This document shows positions 4,780 to 12,916 of a stretch of DNA of 20,009 bases, in pieces. Positions within the stretch are counted from its first letter, which is position 1. The number at the start of each line of letters is the position of its first letter. This stretch comes from a virus. The stretch is from positions 1 to 20,009 of IMG/VR virus record IMGVR_UViG_3300047470_000123; one strand, given 5' to 3'. The translations under genes were made by a program, and so were the position numbers. Under the pieces are notes generated by a model that saw nothing but the letters and a program-made list of their open reading frames with translations, made no database searches and was not told the origin of the DNA.

Positions 4780-5277
4780 TCAGGCCCTGATGGCGAACAG
4801 GCCTTTGCGGGCGATGTACGCGGTGAACTGAAGGCTGCTCGGGCTGGCCGAGACAGCGGGCTTCTGGCTGCTGCTGGATGCAGCGGCGTATTGAACTTCG
4901 ACCGCTCCCTCGACGCGCTCCCTGGTAACGGCACCAGTGCGCTTGTCGACCGGGTCGATGTCGTCAGCGTGGATCTCGGCGGCAAGCGCCATCTGCCCGT
5001 TTTTGATTCGGACAGGAATGGAATCGGACGGCAAGATTCGTTCGTCGATGGTTATGTCTCGGCGTGGCCAGGACAGGGCCTGCTCGCCGTTGGTGCGGGT
5101 GCCTTTCCAGGTGTATCCGTCCATGGCCAATGCAGCGCGTCGCAATAGGGATTCCTGAGCTGGGGTATCTGCCGGGATGGTCGCGCCATAGTTCGCGGCG
5201 TAGGTGACCAGTTCAGCGGCCGTGGCGAAGCTCTCGGCGTCCGGCTTACCGGTGCCATCTTCAATGATCAGTGACAC
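4780..5277 (-). CDS. head-tail connector protein, DnaT-like (DnaT_2) family
   Basis: This is a 165-residue protein with a GTG start at 5277 and a strong GGAGGGG ribosome site about 8 bases upstream. The N-terminus MSLIIEDGTGKPDAESFATAAE and the following helical segment with AALAMDGYTWKGTRTNGEQAL match a widespread phage family annotated as putative DnaT-like ssDNA-binding protein. In phages this family is encoded between capsid and tail genes and most probably works as the head-tail adaptor. The C-terminus has a Ser-rich linker (ASSSSQKPA). The DnaT name probably misleads; position argues for a connector. Confidence 0.78.
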   Translation of the reverse strand: MSLIIEDGTGKPDAESFATAAELVTYAANYGATIPADTPAQESLLRRAALAMDGYTWKGTRTNGEQALSWPRRDITIDERILPSDSIPVRIKNGQMALAAEIHADDIDPVDKRTGAVTRERVEGAVEVQYAAASSSSQKPAVSASPSSLQFTAYIARKGLFAIRA

Positions 5278-5870: not shown

Positions 5871-6839
5871 TTACTTGGAGGCATCACCGATCAGAGCAAC
5901 ACCGGCGGTGTGCTTGATGCTGGTGGCGGTCTTGTCCCAGTTGGTACCGGTCGCCAGCTCGGCGTCGGTTGGCGACTTGCCACCGGTGGTGGTGTCCCAG
6001 GTGTAGCCCTTCAGGCCCAGACCGAAGGTGTAGTCGGTTTGGAGCGTGGTTTCGATACGCTCCTTACCATTGGTGGTCTGGACGTTGCTGATGATGTCGC
6101 GGCCGTCGTGGACCAGGGCAGCGCCCTGCACCAGGGACAGGATAATTTCCTTGTTTGGGGTGCCGGCCTGCATCAGCGCCGGGGCATCCGTCACAACGGA
6201 GATCTTGCCGAGGATGTCCACCACGCGGACGTTACCCGCCTGGAACAGCTGCTGCTGATTCGCCAGGTTCTGGCCGACCAACTTGTGGTAGCTGGTGCCC
6301 TGCATCACCTGAGTAACCAGGTTCTGGCTCGCGTCGCCGAACTTCGCGTGAGCGTTGTTCAGGCCGGCGTAGGTGATGCCTGCGGTAGCCGACACATCGT
6401 TGACCGCCGCGGCTTGGGCGGTGATTGCAGCAACCAAGGCAGCGATCGCAGTGTTCAGCTGATCCTTCAGCAGGATTTCAGCGAACGCACGGCTGGCTAC
6501 TTCGATGCCTTGCGCGGTAGGGCGCTCCAGCCAGGTCATTTGCGACGGCTCGTAACGGATCGGACCGAAGCCGCCGGCGACTTTCACCGAGGTGTTTTTC
6601 AGTTCGGTCAGGTCGGTGGTGGCAACAGTGGCGTTTGCGCTGTAGCGATCCACGCGGCGCTGGGCTGCCGCCAGGGTCTGAAAGAACGACTCTTGGAGGA
6701 AGTCGCCGGTAAAGCCGTCCGGAGACAGCACGATTGCGCCGCGGCTGGCAGCGTTGAAAGCGGCCAGATACTGGTCCAGCGTCTCAAGAGTCGCCGGCAT
6801 GATGTATTCGTTGAAAACCTGCATTTGCGACAGTGACAT
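5871..6839 (-). CDS. major capsid protein (gp13-like family)
   Basis: This is a 322-residue protein directly downstream of a scaffold-like gene, the standard capsid position. The N-terminus (MSLSQMQVFNEYIMPATLET), the segment FNAASRGAIVL with FTGDFLQESFF, and the later DLTELKNTSVKVAGGFGPI are typical of the gp13-like major capsid family that builds HK97-fold shells. A long Ala-rich helical stretch (residues ~125-150) is consistent with the spine helix. AAGGAAATAACTC precedes the ATG. The C-terminal half carries LSLVQGAALVHDGRDI and a Thr/Gly-rich end. No N-terminal delta domain or protease gene is visible nearby, so the separate scaffold gene is expected to guide assembly. Confidence 0.87.
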   Translation of the reverse strand: MSLSQMQVFNEYIMPATLETLDQYLAAFNAASRGAIVLSPDGFTGDFLQESFFQTLAAAQRRVDRYSANATVATTDLTELKNTSVKVAGGFGPIRYEPSQMTWLERPTAQGIEVASRAFAEILLKDQLNTAIAALVAAITAQAAAVNDVSATAGITYAGLNNAHAKFGDASQNLVTQVMQGTSYHKLVGQNLANQQQLFQAGNVRVVDILGKISVVTDAPALMQAGTPNKEIILSLVQGAALVHDGRDIISNVQTTNGKERIETTLQTDYTFGLGLKGYTWDTTTGGKSPTDAELATGTNWDKTATSIKHTAGVALIGDASK

Positions 6840-6850
6840 GAGTTATTTCC

Positions 6851-7561
6851 TTACGATTGTGGGAGATCAGGGAACCGGCTCGCGATTGCGGCCTGTCGCT
6901 CCTCTTTGGTGCCGCCGATTTTTCCTTTTGCGGCCCCGCCGCCATTGCCAGCACCTGAAGCCCCGCCACCGGATGCCTTGCTACCCGCGATCAACGGCGC
7001 GAAGGCCGCGTTGTTTGCGAATTCAGCTTTCAGCTCGTCCAGCGTTGACGCTGAGAGCTTGCCCTGCTTGTCGAGTACGACAACAACAGGCTTCCCGTCG
7101 CGCTGCTCGACGCTCAGGCGGCGCTCGATGTGCGGCAACAGGGCTTCTGCACTGCCTGGGATTGCCAGGGCAGACGCGATGTCAGTAGCGGTACGGCCGA
7201 CAGTCAGATCCCGGATCTGCCCGCCCAGGCTGCCACGCTCCTGTTCCAGCAAGCCGTTCAGCTCGGCTTCGCGGCGGTTGTACTTTTCCAACCAGGACTT
7301 TTCGAGCTCTTCGACGTTACCGGATTTGCGGGCCGCCTCTTCGCGCTCTGCGCGAGCTGCGTCCTCAGCTTCGCGACGAGCCTTCTCGGCCGCTTTCTTC
7401 TCGCTCAGCAGTTCCTCGACCTTCGACTTCAGGCCGCTCACGTCCTCGGGTTGCGGCAAGCCTTCGATGCCCAGCACGAATTTGCCGTCCTTCTCGACGT
7501 ACAGCGCTTTTACCGAATCGTCGACGCCTTCGAGGGTGTCCAGTTGGAATTTCAAGGTCAT
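6851..7561 (-). CDS. scaffold-like protein
   Basis: This is a 236-residue protein immediately upstream of the capsid gene. The start is taken at 7561 (MTLKFQLDTLEG). The frame stays open further upstream but crosses a terminator hairpin. The N-terminal part (LEGVDDSVKALYVEKDGKF) is typical of phage scaffold-type proteins. Residues ~45-105 form a highly charged Ala/Glu/Lys/Arg helix, almost certainly coiled coil. A Gly/Ala-rich linker (GGGASGAGNGGGAAKG) separates it from a short C-terminal tail (GTKEERQAAIASRFPDL) that could bind the capsid protein. Strong composition and position; no enzymatic motif seen. Confidence 0.85.
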   Translation of the reverse strand: MTLKFQLDTLEGVDDSVKALYVEKDGKFVLGIEGLPQPEDVSGLKSKVEELLSEKKAAEKARREAEDAARAEREEAARKSGNVEELEKSWLEKYNRREAELNGLLEQERGSLGGQIRDLTVGRTATDIASALAIPGSAEALLPHIERRLSVEQRDGKPVVVVLDKQGKLSASTLDELKAEFANNAAFAPLIAGSKASGGGASGAGNGGGAAKGKIGGTKEERQAAIASRFPDLPQS

Positions 7562-7605: not shown

Positions 7606-7630
7606 AAAAACCCCGCACTTGGCGGGGTTT
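7606..7630 (-). terminator. intrinsic terminator upstream of the scaffold gene
   Basis: On the minus strand a perfect 9-bp stem (AAACCCCGC/GCGGGGTTT) with a 5-base loop is followed by TTTTT. It is the second of two terminators in the 176-base interval between the membrane-protein gene and the scaffold gene. Nothing else is recognised in that interval. Confidence 0.85.
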
Positions 7631-7703
7631 GGAGTGATGTGCGACACGAAATACGGATTACCGTTTTGTGGTGCGGACAAATAGAGCTCAACTCGAACCA
7701 GAA

Positions 7704-7733
7704 CTAAAAAAGCCCGACCAAATGGCAGGGCTT
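7704..7733 (-). terminator. intrinsic terminator after the membrane-protein cargo gene
   Basis: On the minus strand AAGCCC/GGGCTT form the outer stem, with an inner CCA/TGG stem, followed by TTTTTTAG. It starts 5 bases past the stop of the gene at 7738-8352. Confidence 0.8.
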
Positions 7734-7737
7734 ACCG

Positions 7738-8352
7738 TTACTCCATATTATTTGCGCCGGCCGTCATTTTTCGCATTTCAAATAGGCCTTCAGACAAAGC
7801 CCCCTCCCAATATCCGGTAGTCGTATGCACTACAAATTTGAGACCACCCACACGCCCACCACAATGCTCATTTACATATTTGGCTATCTCGAACTCTGAA
7901 CCAGGCTCCAGATGGAGGCTGCCTCTCTGACCGTACTCAAGACGAAGGGGGAACTTATCAGGCGAATGATGAGCAAAACCTGTTATTTGCAACCGCATTT
8001 TACTATGGGGGGAATTAACACTCAGCCCGGTAGCGGTTACTGGGCGCTTCCCTTCTGAAGTTAACTCCAAAGAAATGAATGGGTTACCTAAATAACCTGG
8101 CCCCACTGGAAAGCTGGCATTGGATATGACTTTGAGCAACTCGGCGTCTTCACGACGCTGTTTGTCTGCGAGCCATAGCGTAACGATGACCGCCAGTAGT
8201 GCTCCAGTTCCTGAAACCCAGTCCCCTACGCTACCCCAGTTCGGCACAAAACGTACCGTCGACTCCGGGTTCATGTTTATCCCAGCAGTTAACCCTAGGA
8301 ACCCGCAAATGACACATGCAGCGACACCGCATAACAATAAAATCCAGTTCAT
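7738..8352 (-). CDS. two-helix membrane protein with large C-terminal domain; probable moron
   Basis: This is a 204-residue protein of unknown family inserted between the minor head and scaffold genes. Residues ~2-25 (ILLLCGVAACVICGFLGLTAG) and ~44-63 (after WGSVGDWVSG) are hydrophobic and predict two membrane helices. A charged segment follows (ADKQRREDAELL), then about 130 residues of beta-rich sequence. The motif VGDWVSGTGALLAV recurs in many uncharacterised bacterial membrane proteins. GGAGGCGG precedes the ATG at 8352. Base composition is visibly lower in GC than the flanking head genes, and the gene ends in its own terminator. These are typical marks of a moron expressed on its own. Host-envelope modification or exclusion of other phages are reasonable guesses, not shown. 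Confidence 0.85.
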   Translation of the reverse strand: MNWILLLCGVAACVICGFLGLTAGINMNPESTVRFVPNWGSVGDWVSGTGALLAVIVTLWLADKQRREDAELLKVISNASFPVGPGYLGNPFISLELTSEGKRPVTATGLSVNSPHSKMRLQITGFAHHSPDKFPLRLEYGQRGSLHLEPGSEFEIAKYVNEHCGGRVGGLKFVVHTTTGYWEGALSEGLFEMRKMTAGANNME

Positions 8353-8407
8353 TTCCGCCTCCTAATTTAAAGGCGCGGTTATATCAAGTGGTGCGGAATG
8401 CTGCCAC

Positions 8408-9478
8408 TCAAATGCCAGCACGCTTGAACATTTCCGGCTCAAGCTCGCGCATGCGGTCCAGGGTGATCGGCTTGAAGTTCTTGCCCAGCTGCAGGGCGGC
8501 GAACCTGTCAGCGTCGAGGCCGCCATTCATCAGCAGCTTGGCGCGGTTTGGGCCGATGGCCAGCTCGATAAAGCTCATCGGCTGGGTCTTCAGCCAGGCG
8601 TAATACGTGAGGCTCGCCGGCACCTGGCCGGTGACGCTCGCCCGGGTCGCGCCCTTGCTGAACATCTGGCTGAACTTGGTCAGCAGGATGAAGCTGGTGC
8701 GGCAGTTCGGGTGGAACGGAGGCCGGGGCCCAGAGTCGACCGGGTAGACCTGCTGATCGATCGATCGACACAGCGGCGTCGTCTTGCTGTCCAGAGTGGC
8801 GATCAGTTGCACACCGGAGACGAACTCGTCGTTCGCCTTGGCTACCTCATTGCGCGCCTGGCTGGCGACATGCTGCACCGACGTGCGAACCACCGTGCCG
8901 GCATTGCGTTCGGTCGTGGCCAGGATGCCGTCGGAGTAGGCGAGCGCCTTGGTGCCGCGGATCTGCCGGACTATCTCGGCGTTGGTCTGCCCCTCGAACC
9001 AGCCCTGCCGGATCGCCCCGCCGATCTTCTCGATTTCGGCTTTCGACCAGTCTTTGATGAACGAGTCGAGCAGCTTGCCGCCTCCGTTGCCCTTGATGCT
9101 GAGCGGGTTCTTGAAGGCTGCTGTCCTGAGTGCCTGGAGCGCTGGCACGGCCGCATCGAGGCTGATACCGACCGGCAGCGTATTGGTCAGTATCTTGGCC
9201 TCAAAGCTGGCCTGCGACTGCGCAATGTCCATCAAGTCGAGCTGCAGCTGATCGGTGTAACGGCCGAGAATGTCAGCCAGGACCGTGTCGACTTCCTTCA
9301 GCAGCTTGTCCAGGCGCGCCCGGGTGAAGTCGGTCAGTTCGTCGCCGCTCAACCTCTCCCGGATGCTCTGGTCGATCTGCACCAGGAAGGGACCGAATTT
9401 CTTCGCTTCCCCTGACTTCAGCCGCTCGAGCATGACCATGTTGCGGATGCTGCTGTCGAGCTGCTCGATGGTCGTCAT
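8408..9478 (-). CDS. Mu gpF-like minor head protein
   Basis: This is a 356-residue protein directly after the portal gene, with the ATG overlapping the portal stop (TGATG). The C-terminal half carries the family signature of phage minor head proteins (PF04233): TERNAGTVVRTSVQHVASQA, then TPLCRSIDQQVYPVD, and PPFHPNCRTSFI. The Cys and His-Pro-Asn-Cys-Arg residues are the conserved core. The N-terminal half is helical. Such proteins sit inside the capsid next to the portal and may be ejected with DNA. The protein is close to the normal length of the family and appears intact. Confidence 0.9.
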   Translation of the reverse strand: MTTIEQLDSSIRNMVMLERLKSGEAKKFGPFLVQIDQSIRERLSGDELTDFTRARLDKLLKEVDTVLADILGRYTDQLQLDLMDIAQSQASFEAKILTNTLPVGISLDAAVPALQALRTAAFKNPLSIKGNGGGKLLDSFIKDWSKAEIEKIGGAIRQGWFEGQTNAEIVRQIRGTKALAYSDGILATTERNAGTVVRTSVQHVASQARNEVAKANDEFVSGVQLIATLDSKTTPLCRSIDQQVYPVDSGPRPPFHPNCRTSFILLTKFSQMFSKGATRASVTGQVPASLTYYAWLKTQPMSFIELAIGPNRAKLLMNGGLDADRFAALQLGKNFKPITLDRMRELEPEMFKRAGI

Positions 9479-10905
9479 CAGTCACCGCCAAGGGCCAGGC
9501 CCGCCGTACTTGACTCCAGTTCGCCCCGGATTTCCTCGTCGGTCTTCTCGGCGTCGATCACACCGCGATCACGCAGGTATTGCCAGAAATCCGACTCAGG
9601 CACGCGACCGGCCTGCACGGCATTGAACAGGGCGGACATGATCGATGCGTCCAGGCTGACCTGGGTGAAGTCCTGATTGATCTTGTAGACGGTCTCGCCT
9701 GATGCGTTCGAGAACTCAGCCATCCAGGCCAGGCACTGACTGTATGCCTCGCTGACGTTGCTCACGATCAGCGACAGGACGCTATGCTCGGCGGCGCTGT
9801 CGTTGTCGGCCTGGGTGGCAGTCTTCACCGCACTGCCACGCTCGATCAGCCGGGCGCCGAGGGAAACCATGTCCCCCTTCTTGGCGTCCATGGCCTCTTT
9901 TACGAGGGTGTTTGGCTCAGGCTGGGCAAACCCGCACGATCCATCCTTTGGCAGCGTGAGCGGCGCCCGGGAGCCAACATAGATGCCGTTCGCCTCCAGA
10001 TGATCGCGCCAGGCTTCATCAAGCCCAGCAATCCAGAATTGAGGTTGACCGGCGAAGTAGGCCGAATCCTCATAATCCGCGCTGTTGTGATAATGGCCGA
10101 TGTTGATCTCGGCCATGTCGTACAGCGGGGAGTCGTCTACCGAAGAGTCATTGTTTTCGCTACCCAGGAACTGGAAGGGGATCACGCGCCACGGCTGGCC
10201 GAGGCCATTCAGTGGGGCGAAGGGTTCGACAATCCGCGAACTCTCCTTTGACCCGTCTTCCCAGACCTCCTGCGTGTACACGCCCGAGTCATCGAGGCGC
10301 AGAACCCGAAACTGAACCTTCTGTTCGGTGCCAAACCCGTCATCGGTGTCGACATCCACCGTCTCGCGCAGCACGATCAGGCACAGCAGATGCTGGCCGC
10401 CGACTTGGCGAGTCTTCCAGTTGATGATTGCCTCGGCCGGGTAGCTGGCAATGTTCGCCCGAGCCCGACCGGATTGTTCGTCTGCCTTGCTCACGGTGCC
10501 CGACTTCACGGCGGCATAGTCCACCAGCAGCCCATGACGGCCGACTTCGAGCAGATGCCCGGTCACCGACTGCGACTGTTGATAAATACTCACGCCCTGG
10601 CCGTCGATGTCCTTGGCCACATATTCGAGTGCGCCGGGAACGGTCAGCGTTGGCCAGGTGCGAAACGCCGCACCCACCAGACTGTGTTTCGTGCGCCCGG
10701 TGGCGTTGTAGAACACGGCCCGCTTGAGATAATCCTCGTAGCGTGCGGTGTTGGCCGCGCTCTTGTCGTCCGGGTTCGGCTTCGGCAGATACCGTTCCTT
10801 GCCGGCCTTGATCGCCTCTGACCCTTTGCACACGTCACGCACCAGGCGCCAACGGCTCAGGGCCGCGTCGTATTCCGGTCGGGTAAAAGTGACATCGTTG
10901 GCCAT
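9478..10905 (-). CDS. portal protein (DUF4055 family)
   Basis: This is a 475-residue protein between large terminase and minor head gene, the fixed position of the portal, the dodecameric ring through which DNA enters and leaves the head. The N-terminus (EYDAALSRWRLVRDVCKGSEAIK), the tract YLKRAVFYNATGRTKHSLVG and the central FQFLGSENND with INIGHYHNSADYED are characteristic of the DUF4055 portal group. The C-terminal part is helical with acidic stretches. Its ATG shares one base with the terminase stop (TAATG), and its stop overlaps the next ATG. Complete in length, with no sign of disruption. Confidence 0.88.
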   Translation of the reverse strand: MANDVTFTRPEYDAALSRWRLVRDVCKGSEAIKAGKERYLPKPNPDDKSAANTARYEDYLKRAVFYNATGRTKHSLVGAAFRTWPTLTVPGALEYVAKDIDGQGVSIYQQSQSVTGHLLEVGRHGLLVDYAAVKSGTVSKADEQSGRARANIASYPAEAIINWKTRQVGGQHLLCLIVLRETVDVDTDDGFGTEQKVQFRVLRLDDSGVYTQEVWEDGSKESSRIVEPFAPLNGLGQPWRVIPFQFLGSENNDSSVDDSPLYDMAEINIGHYHNSADYEDSAYFAGQPQFWIAGLDEAWRDHLEANGIYVGSRAPLTLPKDGSCGFAQPEPNTLVKEAMDAKKGDMVSLGARLIERGSAVKTATQADNDSAAEHSVLSLIVSNVSEAYSQCLAWMAEFSNASGETVYKINQDFTQVSLDASIMSALFNAVQAGRVPESDFWQYLRDRGVIDAEKTDEEIRGELESSTAGLALGGD

Positions 10906-12392
10906 TATCGAGCGAATCCCATGCTGATTGATTTAACCGGCTTTCTCGCGCTCTTCGCGACGGCGAAGTAACGAAAGGCGTCAGAGCCGTGCGATGTCCA
11001 GTCGTGCAGCGGGTTGTCTTTCCAGCAGCCGCGCTTGTCGTCCCATTCCTTGCGACAGCCCTCAAGGCATGCGATCCCCTCTTCGCACTTGGCGCTATCG
11101 AAAACGCATTTGGGCAGGATCTCGCGCGCCTGCTCGATACCGTCATTGACGCCGAGCTTCGGCACGACCTGAAACGTCATGCTGTATTTCTGTCCGTCGA
11201 TCTCGTAGCCCTCACGGGCCAGCTCGCGGCGGGTCTTGGCATCGCTGCCGAACTCGCGGTTATCGATGTCGTGCGGCCCCCAGTGCTCGGAATAGGTGTA
11301 ACCCCGATCCTTGAGCACCTTCATGTAGTGCCGCAGGCCTTCGCCCGAGTTCTCGTAGTAGTCGATGACGTGATACTCGTCTCCGACCTGGCGCACGAAC
11401 CAGATGGCCGTAGAGTCGCCGACGCCGATATCCCAGAAGGTCATCACCGGCTGATGGCTGTTGTCCGGCACGGAGCCGATGCGCTGATTCAGGTAGAGCT
11501 TGGCGAACTGCTTGGCGTAGTAGGCGCCCTCTCCCGACTGCTGGAAGGCCTCGGCCGGTATCGACGGGTATTCCCGCTTCATGTCTTCGCCGAGCGTCTT
11601 CTCCTTGGCTGCGTACCAGGCCCGCTGACCGTCGTTGGTGACGATCCCGTGCTTGGCGTGCAGTTCTTTGAAGTAATCGGTCAGGCGCTGCGGAATAACC
11701 GCTCCTACGGGGTCCAGCCAGTAGCCTTTGTTCTTCCACCAGGAGAAGAAAAAGAATTTCCAGTCCAGCAGGCCCAGGGGCGTGCCGCTCATCTGCTGTT
11801 TCTCAGCGCTCTGGCTGTAGTCGTAGAAGTAACCGGCCCGGCCCTCTGCCGTGGACTCGATGGTCACGAAGCAATCGGTGGCCACTGCCTCGAAGGCACC
11901 GGTGACGATCTCCCGCGCCTTGTCGGGGAACTTGGCGCAGATCTTCCCGAACTCGGACACATGCAGATAGCGCAGGGTGCCGCCCCGGAAGGATGTACTC
12001 ACATACAGCGAGCCGCCTTTACGGAAAACCAGCTCGCCCGCGGCGTCGTTGCTGGCCGGGTTGGCTGCGCGGATCTCGGCGGGCAGGTTGTCGTAGGCAT
12101 ATTTGATCTTCTCACGGAACAGGCGCTTGGCGTCCGTCAGGGTGTGAGCGATCAGGGCGCACTTGGCCGACTCGAACAGGGCGGCGTCCAGCTGGATGAT
12201 GCACTGCTCAGTCGTGAAGCCGAGTTGCCGGGCCTTCAGGATGATGTTGCGGGTGTGCAGGCCGTCGTAATACTCGATCTGCTCGTCCGTCATCCGAAAA
12301 CGGACTTTCTTACCCTGCTTGTCGGTGATGCAGTACAGATTGTTCAGGCGCCAACGCTTGTCCCTGAGCAGCTTCATGTGCTCGGGCTTCAT
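10905..12392 (-). CDS. terL: terminase large subunit
   Basis: This 495-residue DNA-packaging motor combines an ATPase and a headful or cos nuclease. An adenine-binding region precedes a Walker A-like motif ARQLGFTT (residues ~54-61). The Walker B-type segment is LRYLHVSEFGK (~140-150), with Glu147 as likely catalytic residue. The coupling motif is TIESTAEG (~177-184). The nuclease domain follows with TFWDIGVGDSTA (Asp321), HVIDYY (Asp344), GPHDID (Asp375) and SDAFRY (Asp471), the acidic cluster expected for the RNase H-like fold. AAGGACG precedes the ATG. It lies two bases after the small subunit and overlaps the portal gene. Confidence 0.95.
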   Translation of the reverse strand: MKPEHMKLLRDKRWRLNNLYCITDKQGKKVRFRMTDEQIEYYDGLHTRNIILKARQLGFTTEQCIIQLDAALFESAKCALIAHTLTDAKRLFREKIKYAYDNLPAEIRAANPASNDAAGELVFRKGGSLYVSTSFRGGTLRYLHVSEFGKICAKFPDKAREIVTGAFEAVATDCFVTIESTAEGRAGYFYDYSQSAEKQQMSGTPLGLLDWKFFFFSWWKNKGYWLDPVGAVIPQRLTDYFKELHAKHGIVTNDGQRAWYAAKEKTLGEDMKREYPSIPAEAFQQSGEGAYYAKQFAKLYLNQRIGSVPDNSHQPVMTFWDIGVGDSTAIWFVRQVGDEYHVIDYYENSGEGLRHYMKVLKDRGYTYSEHWGPHDIDNREFGSDAKTRRELAREGYEIDGQKYSMTFQVVPKLGVNDGIEQAREILPKCVFDSAKCEEGIACLEGCRKEWDDKRGCWKDNPLHDWTSHGSDAFRYFAVAKSARKPVKSISMGFAR

Positions 12393-12394
12393 GG

Positions 12395-12916
12395 TCAGGC
12401 GTCCTTCGATAGTTCGTCCATCAGGTCGGACAGGCCGCTGACTGTCTTGTCGCCTTCATCGGTGTCGAGGTTGTAGGCCTGGCGCTCACCCTTGATCACT
12501 TTCAGCTGAGCATCGACACCGGCGTTTAGTGCGCGGGAGATATCGCCCAGGTTCTCGGCGACCACTTCCATGTCGCTCAAGGCATCGCTGAGCTTGTCAG
12601 CAATGGCTCGCCACTTCGCCAGACCAGCACGATGCGCAAGCACGACAGCGGCCGCCTGATCGGATGCTTCGTCGATTATCTCGGCATCAGTAACCACTGG
12701 TGCTTGGTTACCGGCAGTGGTTACCGCCCTGGTTACCTTCTGCTTGGTTGCCGTCCTTACTTGCTCAGTGAGATCACGGGTCCAGCCTTCCTTCTTGGCG
12801 CGCTTGAGGATCGTTGCGTGGTTGACGCTGTGCTGCTCACCAATAGATCGCACCGAAAGCGACCCGGCCCGGTAGGCTCGTTGGATTGCCTCCCAGTCGG
12901 GTTGCTTGATTGTCAT
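12395..12916 (-). CDS. terS: terminase small subunit
   Basis: This is a 173-residue DNA-recognition subunit of the packaging machine. Residues ~8-48 form a helix-turn-helix of the type WEAIQRAYRAGSLSVRSIGE followed by a second helix and KRAKKEGWTRDL, common to small terminases of Pseudomonas and enteric phages. The middle region (~75-150) is Ala-rich and helical, suited to oligomerisation, and the C-terminus is acidic (SDLMDELSKDA), probably the part that contacts the large subunit. It is followed after two bases by terL. A terminator lies upstream, so a promoter or read-through must supply its transcription. Confidence 0.9.
   Translation of the reverse strand: MTIKQPDWEAIQRAYRAGSLSVRSIGEQHSVNHATILKRAKKEGWTRDLTEQVRTATKQKVTRAVTTAGNQAPVVTDAEIIDEASDQAAAVVLAHRAGLAKWRAIADKLSDALSDMEVVAENLGDISRALNAGVDAQLKVIKGERQAYNLDTDEGDKTVSGLSDLMDELSKDA

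What the first reader, a model, noticed from the sequence alone, without database searches (positions are those of the whole stretch)
7704..8352. Lower-GC two-helix membrane protein inserted in the head operon
The gene separates minor head and scaffold genes, has different base composition, its own strong ribosome site and its own terminator, and a large soluble domain of no recognised family behind two membrane helices. These are marks of recently acquired cargo, possibly a defence or exclusion factor.
Basis: partly seen in the sequence, partly recalled or inferred. Interest (0 to 1): 0.55.

Follow-up and report, generated by a model that had tools for sequence, protein, structure and literature searches.

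The report
Membrane-protein cargo in phage head operon
A phage related to Pseudomonas phages carries, between two head-building genes, a swappable accessory gene for a membrane protein; related phages keep that spot empty or fill it with other genes, some resembling known anti-immunity genes, so the protein probably serves in conflicts between phages and bacteria.

Summary
In detail: a 204-aa gene (7738-8352, minus strand) between the MuF-type head gene and the scaffold gene, GC 49% against 62% for MuF, with a strong ribosome site, its own terminator, two membrane helices and a soluble beta-sandwich without a Pfam, NCBIfam or PADLOC match. The new result is that this junction is a cargo slot: of 249 MuF-selected loci with a resolved junction (259 examined), 71 are empty and 178 hold cargo, while neighbouring junctions rarely do (1 of 257, 2 of 85, 0 of 197). 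The window's family is the commonest cargo found (29 loci, four MuF backgrounds, always in operon sense). Other occupants include Acb2/Tad1-hairpin and Tad2-like genes, HNH and GIY-YIG nucleases and a CBASS-2TM-like protein. A homologue lies in the P2-like anti-phage hotspot. 'Recently acquired' is not supported: low GC marks 30 of 30 carriers and 141 of 144 other cargo ORFs, and whole-gene synonymous change against the nearest relatives is saturated. Best reading: a moron-type cassette for an inner-membrane conflict factor, more likely prophage exclusion/defence than counter-defence; function is inferred. It is laid out like Cap15/OptE effectors but fails the sequence and profile tests for that family.

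The parts
7738..8352 (-). 2TM / beta-sandwich cargo gene, 204 aa (P0001)
   Evidence: homologues at the same junction
8272..8349 (-). membrane helix 1 (residues 2-27)
   Evidence: model; hydropathy
8149..8238 (-). membrane helix 2 and its extension (residues 39-68); W45 invariant, G48 and G50 nearly invariant in alignment A4
7798..8136 (-). soluble beta-sandwich domain (residues 73-185), fast diverging
8402..8407 (-). possible -35 (GTGGCA), beginning at the first base after the MuF stop codon
   Evidence: 97th-98th percentile of own shuffles; GTGACA in the relative L002; not found by the strict scan
8378..8383 (-). possible extended -10 (TG-A-TATAAC)
   Evidence: TG-G-TATAAC in L002 and L069
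8358..8363 (-). ribosome binding site AGGAGG
   Evidence: sequence
7706..7733 (-). cassette's own intrinsic terminator
   Evidence: z -2.7
7606..7630 (-). slot terminator, also present in empty relatives
   Evidence: z -4.2
8408..9478 (-). MuF-type minor head gene, upstream border of the slot
   Evidence: PF04233
6851..7561 (-). scaffold gene, downstream border of the slot
   Evidence: phrog_206 E 4.9e-58

Best explanation
The gene is one allele of a cargo slot between the MuF-type head gene and the scaffold gene of Pseudomonas siphophages/prophages (shown). It is a self-contained moron-type cassette: ribosome site, ORF and terminator (shown), and a possible weak extended -10 promoter starting right after the MuF stop codon (suggestive). 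Its product should sit in the inner membrane with both ends inside: two helices joined by a conserved short periplasmic loop, carrying a cytoplasmic Ig-like beta-sandwich (model plus inference). Most likely function (inferred): a prophage-expressed exclusion or defence protein. The conserved membrane module would be the acting part (blocking genome entry or disturbing the membrane) and the fast-diverging cytoplasmic domain would recognise the trigger or partner.
For: Slot: 71 empty and 178 filled of 249 resolved loci (gaps 35-153 and 331-1274 nt); gaps of 200 nt or more at 177 of 248 MuF-scaffold junctions against 1 of 257 portal-MuF, 2 of 85 TerL-portal and 0 of 197 scaffold-MCP. Family: 29 loci, four MuF backgrounds. 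Exchange: the window gene is 74% identical to that of L003 while MuF, portal and capsid are 61, 46 and 27% identical. Company: Acb2/Tad1 hairpin (E 5.8e-19), Tad2-like (E 5.3e-24), DUF6998, CBASS 2TM effector-like (E 1e-5). Homologue in the P2-like cos-proximal region (portal next to it in L055), described as an anti-phage hotspot in PMC9122126 (passages). Promoter-like score >=6 upstream of 14 of 26 distinct carriers against 1 of 45 sampled empty junctions. Conserved N-module, divergent C-domain: 44 of 128 pairs with N>=60% have C<=20%; no pair has C>=60% with N<=20%. Purifying selection.
Against: No function was tested. All 29 carriers have the gene in late-operon sense, which also fits late co-transcription with MuF and a lytic-stage role. 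The strict promoter scan finds no site for it. Promoter percentile against own shuffles is only moderately raised (mean 0.71; 6 of 26 at >=0.95), and minus-strand cargo, which should need own promoters, shows no enrichment (mean 0.52, 4 of 35). The best PDB match has Foldseek E 1.6e-3 and VIA Z stays under 8: a common beta-sandwich that gives no mechanism. A chromosomal relative lies 1.7 kb from a CBASS operon in L018, but its near twin L019 has no CBASS hit in the 5.8 kb downstream where L018 has it. One relative (L011) stands in a P. jessenii chromosome with no hit to my phage queries around it.
Confidence: 0.5

Rival explanations
1. Counter-defence: the protein is made late from the head operon and blocks a host immune system that acts at or through the inner membrane, as its slot companions Acb2/Tad1 and Tad2 block nucleotide-signalled immunity.
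For: Acb2/Tad1-hairpin and Tad2-like genes fill the same slot in close relatives of the window phage: L067 and L078 were scanned; L066, L068 and L074 are alike in sequence. The 2TM gene is in operon sense in 29 of 29. In JBD26 the counter-defence gene anti-Tab is on the late-operon strand while tab is on the other strand with its own promoter (PMC10884400 passages).
Against: Promoter-like sequence at the cassette start; a homologue in the P2-like hotspot, several of whose systems were shown to defend; I know of no membrane-anchored counter-defence protein of this form (recall).
Confidence: 0.3
2. Virion or head-assembly part: a membrane-linked factor of head morphogenesis.
For: Recurrent position between MuF and scaffold; operon sense.
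Against: 71 of 249 resolved junctions are empty and most filled ones hold other genes, including phages with MuF and capsid 86% identical to the window's (L077); in the named phages Medea1, Aurca01, Cruim01 and PSASB_03 the next gene follows MuF within 35-121 nt. It has membrane helices.
Confidence: 0.04
3. Other lysogenic-conversion cargo that changes the host for reasons not tied to phage conflict (envelope, stress or signalling).
For: Membrane protein without recognised family; a stand-alone chromosomal relative in P. jessenii (L011).
Against: Slot company and P2-hotspot location point to conflict genes.
Confidence: 0.13
4. Selfish or neutral passenger: the slot tolerates insertions and the gene has no benefit.
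For: Empty and filled alleles coexist.
Against: dN/dS 0.04-0.13 in the computable homologue pairs; retention in four backgrounds.
Confidence: 0.03

Closest known systems
Tab / anti-Tab of Pseudomonas phage JBD26 (PMC10884400)
   Same: Accessory gene lodged in the late operon between core packaging genes, varying among related phages, prophage-expressed defence (passages).
   Different: Between TerS and TerL, 83 aa, opposite strand with its own promoter, acts on the tape measure protein; the window gene is 204 aa, in operon sense, with membrane helices.
Single-gene accessory sites and morons of P. aeruginosa Mu-like phages (PMC4378225)
   Same: Single ORFs inserted between conserved adjacent genes, with different composition (passages).
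   Different: Another phage group; the passages I saw name a site between protease-scaffold and major head gene, not MuF-scaffold, and no 2TM family.
P2-like gpA-gpQ and P4 anti-phage hotspots (PMC9122126)
   Same: One fixed site, many alternative conflict genes; a 28%-identical homologue of the window protein lies in the P2-like site (passages).
   Different: Cos-proximal and 3.2 kb on average in P2-like phages; here the slot is inside the head operon and filled gaps are 331-1274 nt.
HK97 gp15 moron and P22 SieA (superinfection exclusion)
   Same: Prophage proteins that stop incoming phages (HK97 gp15 from recall and a reference title; SieA from the start of an abstract in a search listing; that both act in the membrane is recall).
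   Different: No sequence relation tested.
Cap15 / OptE S-2TM-beta effectors (CBASS, Panoptes)
   Same: Two membrane helices followed by a soluble beta-rich domain (PMC12657218 passages); similar length.
   Different: No PF18153 match, profile comparison probability 0.2%, no synthase gene beside it.
Acb2/Tad1 and Tad2 anti-immunity sponges
   Same: Relatives occupy the very same slot in related phages.
   Different: Nucleotide-sequestering proteins (PMC12043709 passages); the window protein matches neither Pfam family.

Membership tests
Moron (accessory phage gene cassette) | Present in some and absent from other close relatives at one site between conserved genes | tested here: met
   71 empty and 178 filled of 249 resolved junctions; named phages with empty slot
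Moron (accessory phage gene cassette) | Base composition differs from flanking genes | tested here: met
   30 of 30 carriers below their MuF gene, mean 48.4 vs 61.0% GC
Moron (accessory phage gene cassette) | Own terminator | tested here: met
   7706-7733, z -2.7
Moron (accessory phage gene cassette) | Own promoter | tested here: inconclusive
   Promoter-like score raised in carriers against empty sites but only moderately against own shuffles; strict scan finds none for the gene; activity not testable here
S-2TM-beta (Cap15/OptE) effectors | Two membrane helices fused to a soluble beta-rich domain | tested here: met
   Model m061e382f48dd, pLDDT 87.1; a sandwich, not shown to be the nucleotide-binding barrel
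S-2TM-beta (Cap15/OptE) effectors | Sequence match to Cap15_CD_rec PF18153 | tested here: not met
   No Pfam match at E<=0.1; in the same 298 Pseudomonas genomes none of the 14 family places coincides with the 23 PF18153 places
S-2TM-beta (Cap15/OptE) effectors | Profile-level homology to Cap15 | tested here: not met
   hhalign A5 (45 rows) against A7 (5 rows): probability 0.2%
S-2TM-beta (Cap15/OptE) effectors | Adjacent nucleotide synthase (CD-NTase or mCpol) | tested here: not met
   Window neighbours are head genes; of the chromosomal loci checked only L018 lies near a cyclase operon
S-2TM-beta (Cap15/OptE) effectors | Fold of the soluble domain like 7n34/7n35 | tested here: inconclusive
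   Not among the 50 rows shown by Foldseek or VIA, which does not exclude it
Superinfection exclusion protein | Expression blocks infection by other phages | not testable with these tools
   Needs plaque assays
Head or virion protein | Conserved in all relatives of the head module | tested here: not met
   71 of 249 resolved junctions are empty

The most novel reading that the evidence does not exclude
The family is an unrecognised, phage-borne counterpart of 2TM-beta immune effectors. A conserved two-helix membrane module is joined to a fast-diversifying cytoplasmic sensor domain (in L184/L296 apparently replaced by an all-helical one). It senses or intercepts a signal or protein of competing phages or of host cyclic-nucleotide immunity and acts on the membrane. 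It shares its slot with Acb2/Tad2-type sponges because both sides of that signalling war are stored there.
Probability: 0.13. Interest if true: 0.85.

Novelty: new variant of a known kind. Interest (0 to 1): 0.55.

Why it matters
A single intergenic site in the head operon of a group of Pseudomonas phages and prophages turns out to be a short cargo slot holding relatives of known anti-immunity genes and many unknown ones. Anchoring on MuF and scaffold gives a simple way to mine candidate defence and counter-defence genes. The commonest occupant found, the window's 2TM protein, is a concrete test case. I did not see this slot described in the listings of my searches or in the passages of the papers I opened. 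I read no paper whole, and the library holds open-licence papers only.

Tried and rejected
Recent acquisition: rejected as a claim.

Structural head protein: rejected because of the empty sites.

Cap15/OptE membership: rejected at sequence and profile level.

C-terminal domain swapping as the general rule: not shown. With my criterion (best N partner and best C partner differ by at least 12 points each way) only 1 of 48 members (L252) qualifies. Much of the pattern is fast divergence of the C-domain. The L184/L296 type has a predicted all-helical C-domain, but that model is poor (pLDDT 60.6, three sequences).

Fold search gave no mechanism: PDB Foldseek had no match at E<=0.001 (best 1.6e-3, an archaeal pilus protein), VIA best Z 7.6, viral library four matches at E<=0.001, all unnamed or uncharacterised. 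KirBac potassium channels (two helices plus an Ig-like cytoplasmic domain, recall) appear in the Foldseek list at E 0.02-0.07 with TM about 0.35; I treat this as a shared arrangement only. Sequence search of solved structures gave nothing better than E 0.087. The PseuP_222 annotation 'pilin' for the homologue may reflect the same weak archaeal-pilus likeness and is not supported. The PseuP_222 paper holds none of my five terms.

No E. coli genome record matched the PHB48 homologue's DNA at E<=1e-5. The junction palindrome was looked at, but no covariation test was run.

Biases: all four MuF queries (window, L008, L049, L059) come from loci that carry the 2TM gene, and keep the best 80 of 520, 139 and 543 relatives (one search kept 19 of 19), so 29 of 249 is not a population frequency. 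Ten of 259 loci had no scaffold hit and were dropped (listed); at least one of them, L094, is on the contig of L053, which carries the 2TM gene. Cargo ORFs were called by a simple start/SD rule, so cluster counts are approximate; nine clusters judged antisense or spurious, and clusters with median under 60 aa, were left out of the family scans. In the promoter test the 'other plus-strand' and 'empty' groups were random draws of 45 (from up to 99 ORFs and 71 junctions, before removing identical upstreams); related loci are not independent. In one search at most 10 first-look candidates per genome were scored. Searches with A1 and A5 include relatives in the query, so E-values for those relatives are circular; the P2-like homologue rests on the single-sequence search, E 1e-6. 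A sixth phage, Lebethron, was looked at and not counted: a large opposite-strand ORF is annotated behind MuF and no scaffold is named. In Medea1, Aurca01 and Cruim01 the gene after MuF is annotated only 'hypothetical protein'; I take it as the scaffold from its size and place.

Full report
WHAT IS THERE. The window is a virus record of 20,009 bases. The minus strand carries a head operon: small terminase 12395-12916, large terminase 10905-12392, portal (DUF4055) 9478-10905, MuF-type head protein 8408-9478, the gene in question 7738-8352, scaffold 6851-7561, major capsid (Gp13-like) 5871-6839. The 204-aa product has two hydrophobic helices and no match in Pfam, NCBIfam or PADLOC; PHROGs give two weak matches, the better one N-terminal (phrog_16957, E 7.7e-4). 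GC is 49.4% against 62.5% for MuF, GC3 47.8 against 85.9. AGGAGG precedes the ATG by 5 nt. A hairpin with a U-run at 7706-7733 follows the stop codon.

SAME PLACE IN OTHER PHAGES. Homologues in seven viral contigs and in Pseudomonas phage PseuP_222 (34% identity, annotated 'pilin') all follow MuF directly (8 of 8). The one further named record found, Salmonella phage PHB48, has it elsewhere. In L003-L005 the gene is 74% identical to the window's while MuF, portal and capsid are about 61, 46 and 27% identical, so the cassette seems to have moved between backgrounds that otherwise diverged.

A CARGO SLOT. I then searched by MuF, not by cargo (259 loci with a MuF hit). In 249 the scaffold could be placed; 71 junctions are under 200 nt (35-153) and 178 hold cargo (331-1274 nt). 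Control junctions in the same loci: gaps of 200 nt or more at 177 of 248 MuF-scaffold, 1 of 257 portal-MuF, 2 of 85 TerL-portal, 0 of 197 scaffold-MCP. Among the nearest relatives (MuF 79-96% identical) five loci show a 117-nt empty site that keeps the second terminator and the scaffold ribosome site, and others hold unrelated genes. Named phages agree: PseuP_222 has the 2TM gene, phiAH14a a different ORF, and in Medea1, Aurca01, Cruim01 and PSASB_03 no gene is annotated in the gap.

WHO SHARES THE SLOT. The ORF heuristic gave 200 ORFs in 65 clusters. The window's family is the largest: 29 loci, all in operon sense, in four MuF backgrounds. The second, a protein with one helix by eye, is in 22 loci, always on the other strand. 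Scanning 47 representatives found HNH, GIY-YIG, DUF6998, NinX, gp49/66, crAss001_48, Acb2/Tad1 hairpin and Tad2-like families (single proteins); at least 37 of the 47 match no Pfam family at E<=0.001. PADLOC matches are a CBASS 2TM effector and, weakly, PtuB, PDC-S57 and mREase_II. So the slot stores, among many unknown genes, relatives of genes known to block nucleotide-signalled immunity (PMC12043709, passages).

FAMILY BEYOND THE SLOT. In 298 Pseudomonas genomes, 13 carry 14 copies at E<=1e-10. Nine lie between MuF and scaffold hits, seven of these with an extra small gene behind MuF; of the other five, one follows a portal-like hit, one lies in a prophage remnant, one at a contig edge, and two show no phage hit. 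A 28%-identical homologue lies at the end of Salmonella phage PHB48 beyond the replication gene, and in the longer contig L055 a portal and a gpP-like terminase follow. This fits the gpA-gpQ region that PMC9122126 describes as an anti-phage hotspot holding old and tin in P2 (passages). The chromosomal relative in L018 lies 1.7 kb from a CBASS operon with cyclase, E1-E2, JAB and SAVED-2TM genes; its near twin L019 has no CBASS hit in the 5.8 kb downstream, so that association is not fixed. L015 sits near a DUF6602/NucC-like gene.

PROTEIN. The model (pLDDT 87.1, pTM 0.67, 45 sequences) shows helices 2-27 and 39-68, a beta-rich domain over 73-185 and a C-terminal helix. Positive residues after helix 2 suggest that both ends are inside (inference). 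Residues 1-70 are better conserved than the rest: median pairwise identity 44% against 17%; 44 of the 128 pairs with N-module identity of 60% or more have C-domain identity of 20% or less, and no pair has C>=60% with N<=20%. W45 is invariant in A4, and G48, G50, G101 and V175 nearly so, so most C-domains look related; clear swapping passed my criterion in 1 of 48. Fold matches are generic beta-sandwiches.

AGE AND SELECTION. dN/dS is 0.04-0.13 in the 7 computable of 21 pairs; whole-gene synonymous change against the window gene is beyond the formula's limit in all six of its pairs. Low GC holds in 30 of 30 carriers and 141 of 144 other cargo ORFs. 'Recently acquired' therefore does not follow.

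EXPRESSION. The strict scan finds no sigma-70 site on the minus strand. A weighted score finds GTGGCA-18-TATAAC with a TG extension, starting at the first base after the MuF stop codon (97th-98th percentile of shuffles; GTGACA-18-TATAAC in L002). Scores of 6 or more occur in 14 of 26 distinct carrier upstreams, 19 of 45 other plus-strand cargo (drawn), 13 of 35 minus-strand cargo and 1 of 45 empty junctions (drawn). Against own shuffles the means are 0.71, 0.57, 0.52 and 0.36. This leans to an own promoter but does not settle it, and the minus-strand group, a would-be positive control, is not enriched.

INTERPRETATION. That the gene is cargo in a hotspot is, in my view, near certain. Its role is inferred: phage-host or phage-phage conflict at the inner membrane. 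I favour exclusion/defence because of the promoter-like start, the P2-hotspot homologue and the membrane-effector-like layout; counter-defence is next, because of the Acb2/Tad2 company and the constant operon sense. Tab and anti-Tab of JBD26 (PMC10884400, passages) show that both kinds can live in a late operon. PMC4378225 (passages) describes morons as single ORFs with promoter and terminator between adjacent genes, and single-ORF accessory sites in Mu-like Pseudomonas phages, so the kind is known; the site and the family are what is new here. The protein is laid out like Cap15/OptE (PMC12657218, passages) but is not a member by sequence or profile.

Noticed in passing
window 7638-7680 and the L068, L069, L074, L077 junctions: Window-type MuF junctions carry a palindrome (for example CGCGCCACG..CGTGGCGCG; perfect 14-bp stem in L069), degenerate in the window; cargo can lie on either side of it. 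Role unknown.
   Followed up: partly
L069:5125-6170: The slot holds the 2TM gene and, behind it, a 52-aa very acidic ORF (also in L152), possibly a nucleic-acid mimic.
   Followed up: no
L086, L097, L255 and others (cluster 1): Second commonest slot occupant: a membrane protein (one helix by eye), median 175 aa, on the opposite strand in 22 loci; its representative has no PADLOC match.
   Followed up: partly
L342, L344, L345, L347-L350: In these prophages a gene similar to window gene 4780-5277 (32-42% identity) stands between MuF and the 2TM gene, as if a post-capsid gene had been copied or moved into the slot.
   Followed up: no
L018:2893-12357: A Pseudomonas chromosome places a family member between an unknown 459-aa ORF with a TniQ-like gene beyond it and a CBASS operon with a SAVED-2TM effector.
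   Followed up: partly
L076 and L080 (contig IMGVR_UViG_3300046542_000211): One contig has two MuF loci at its two ends, one with an empty slot and one with an HNH gene; perhaps a joined assembly of two phages.
   Followed up: no
OP626800.1 21864-22469: The PseuP_222 homologue is annotated as 'pilin'; nothing here supports that name.
   Followed up: partly
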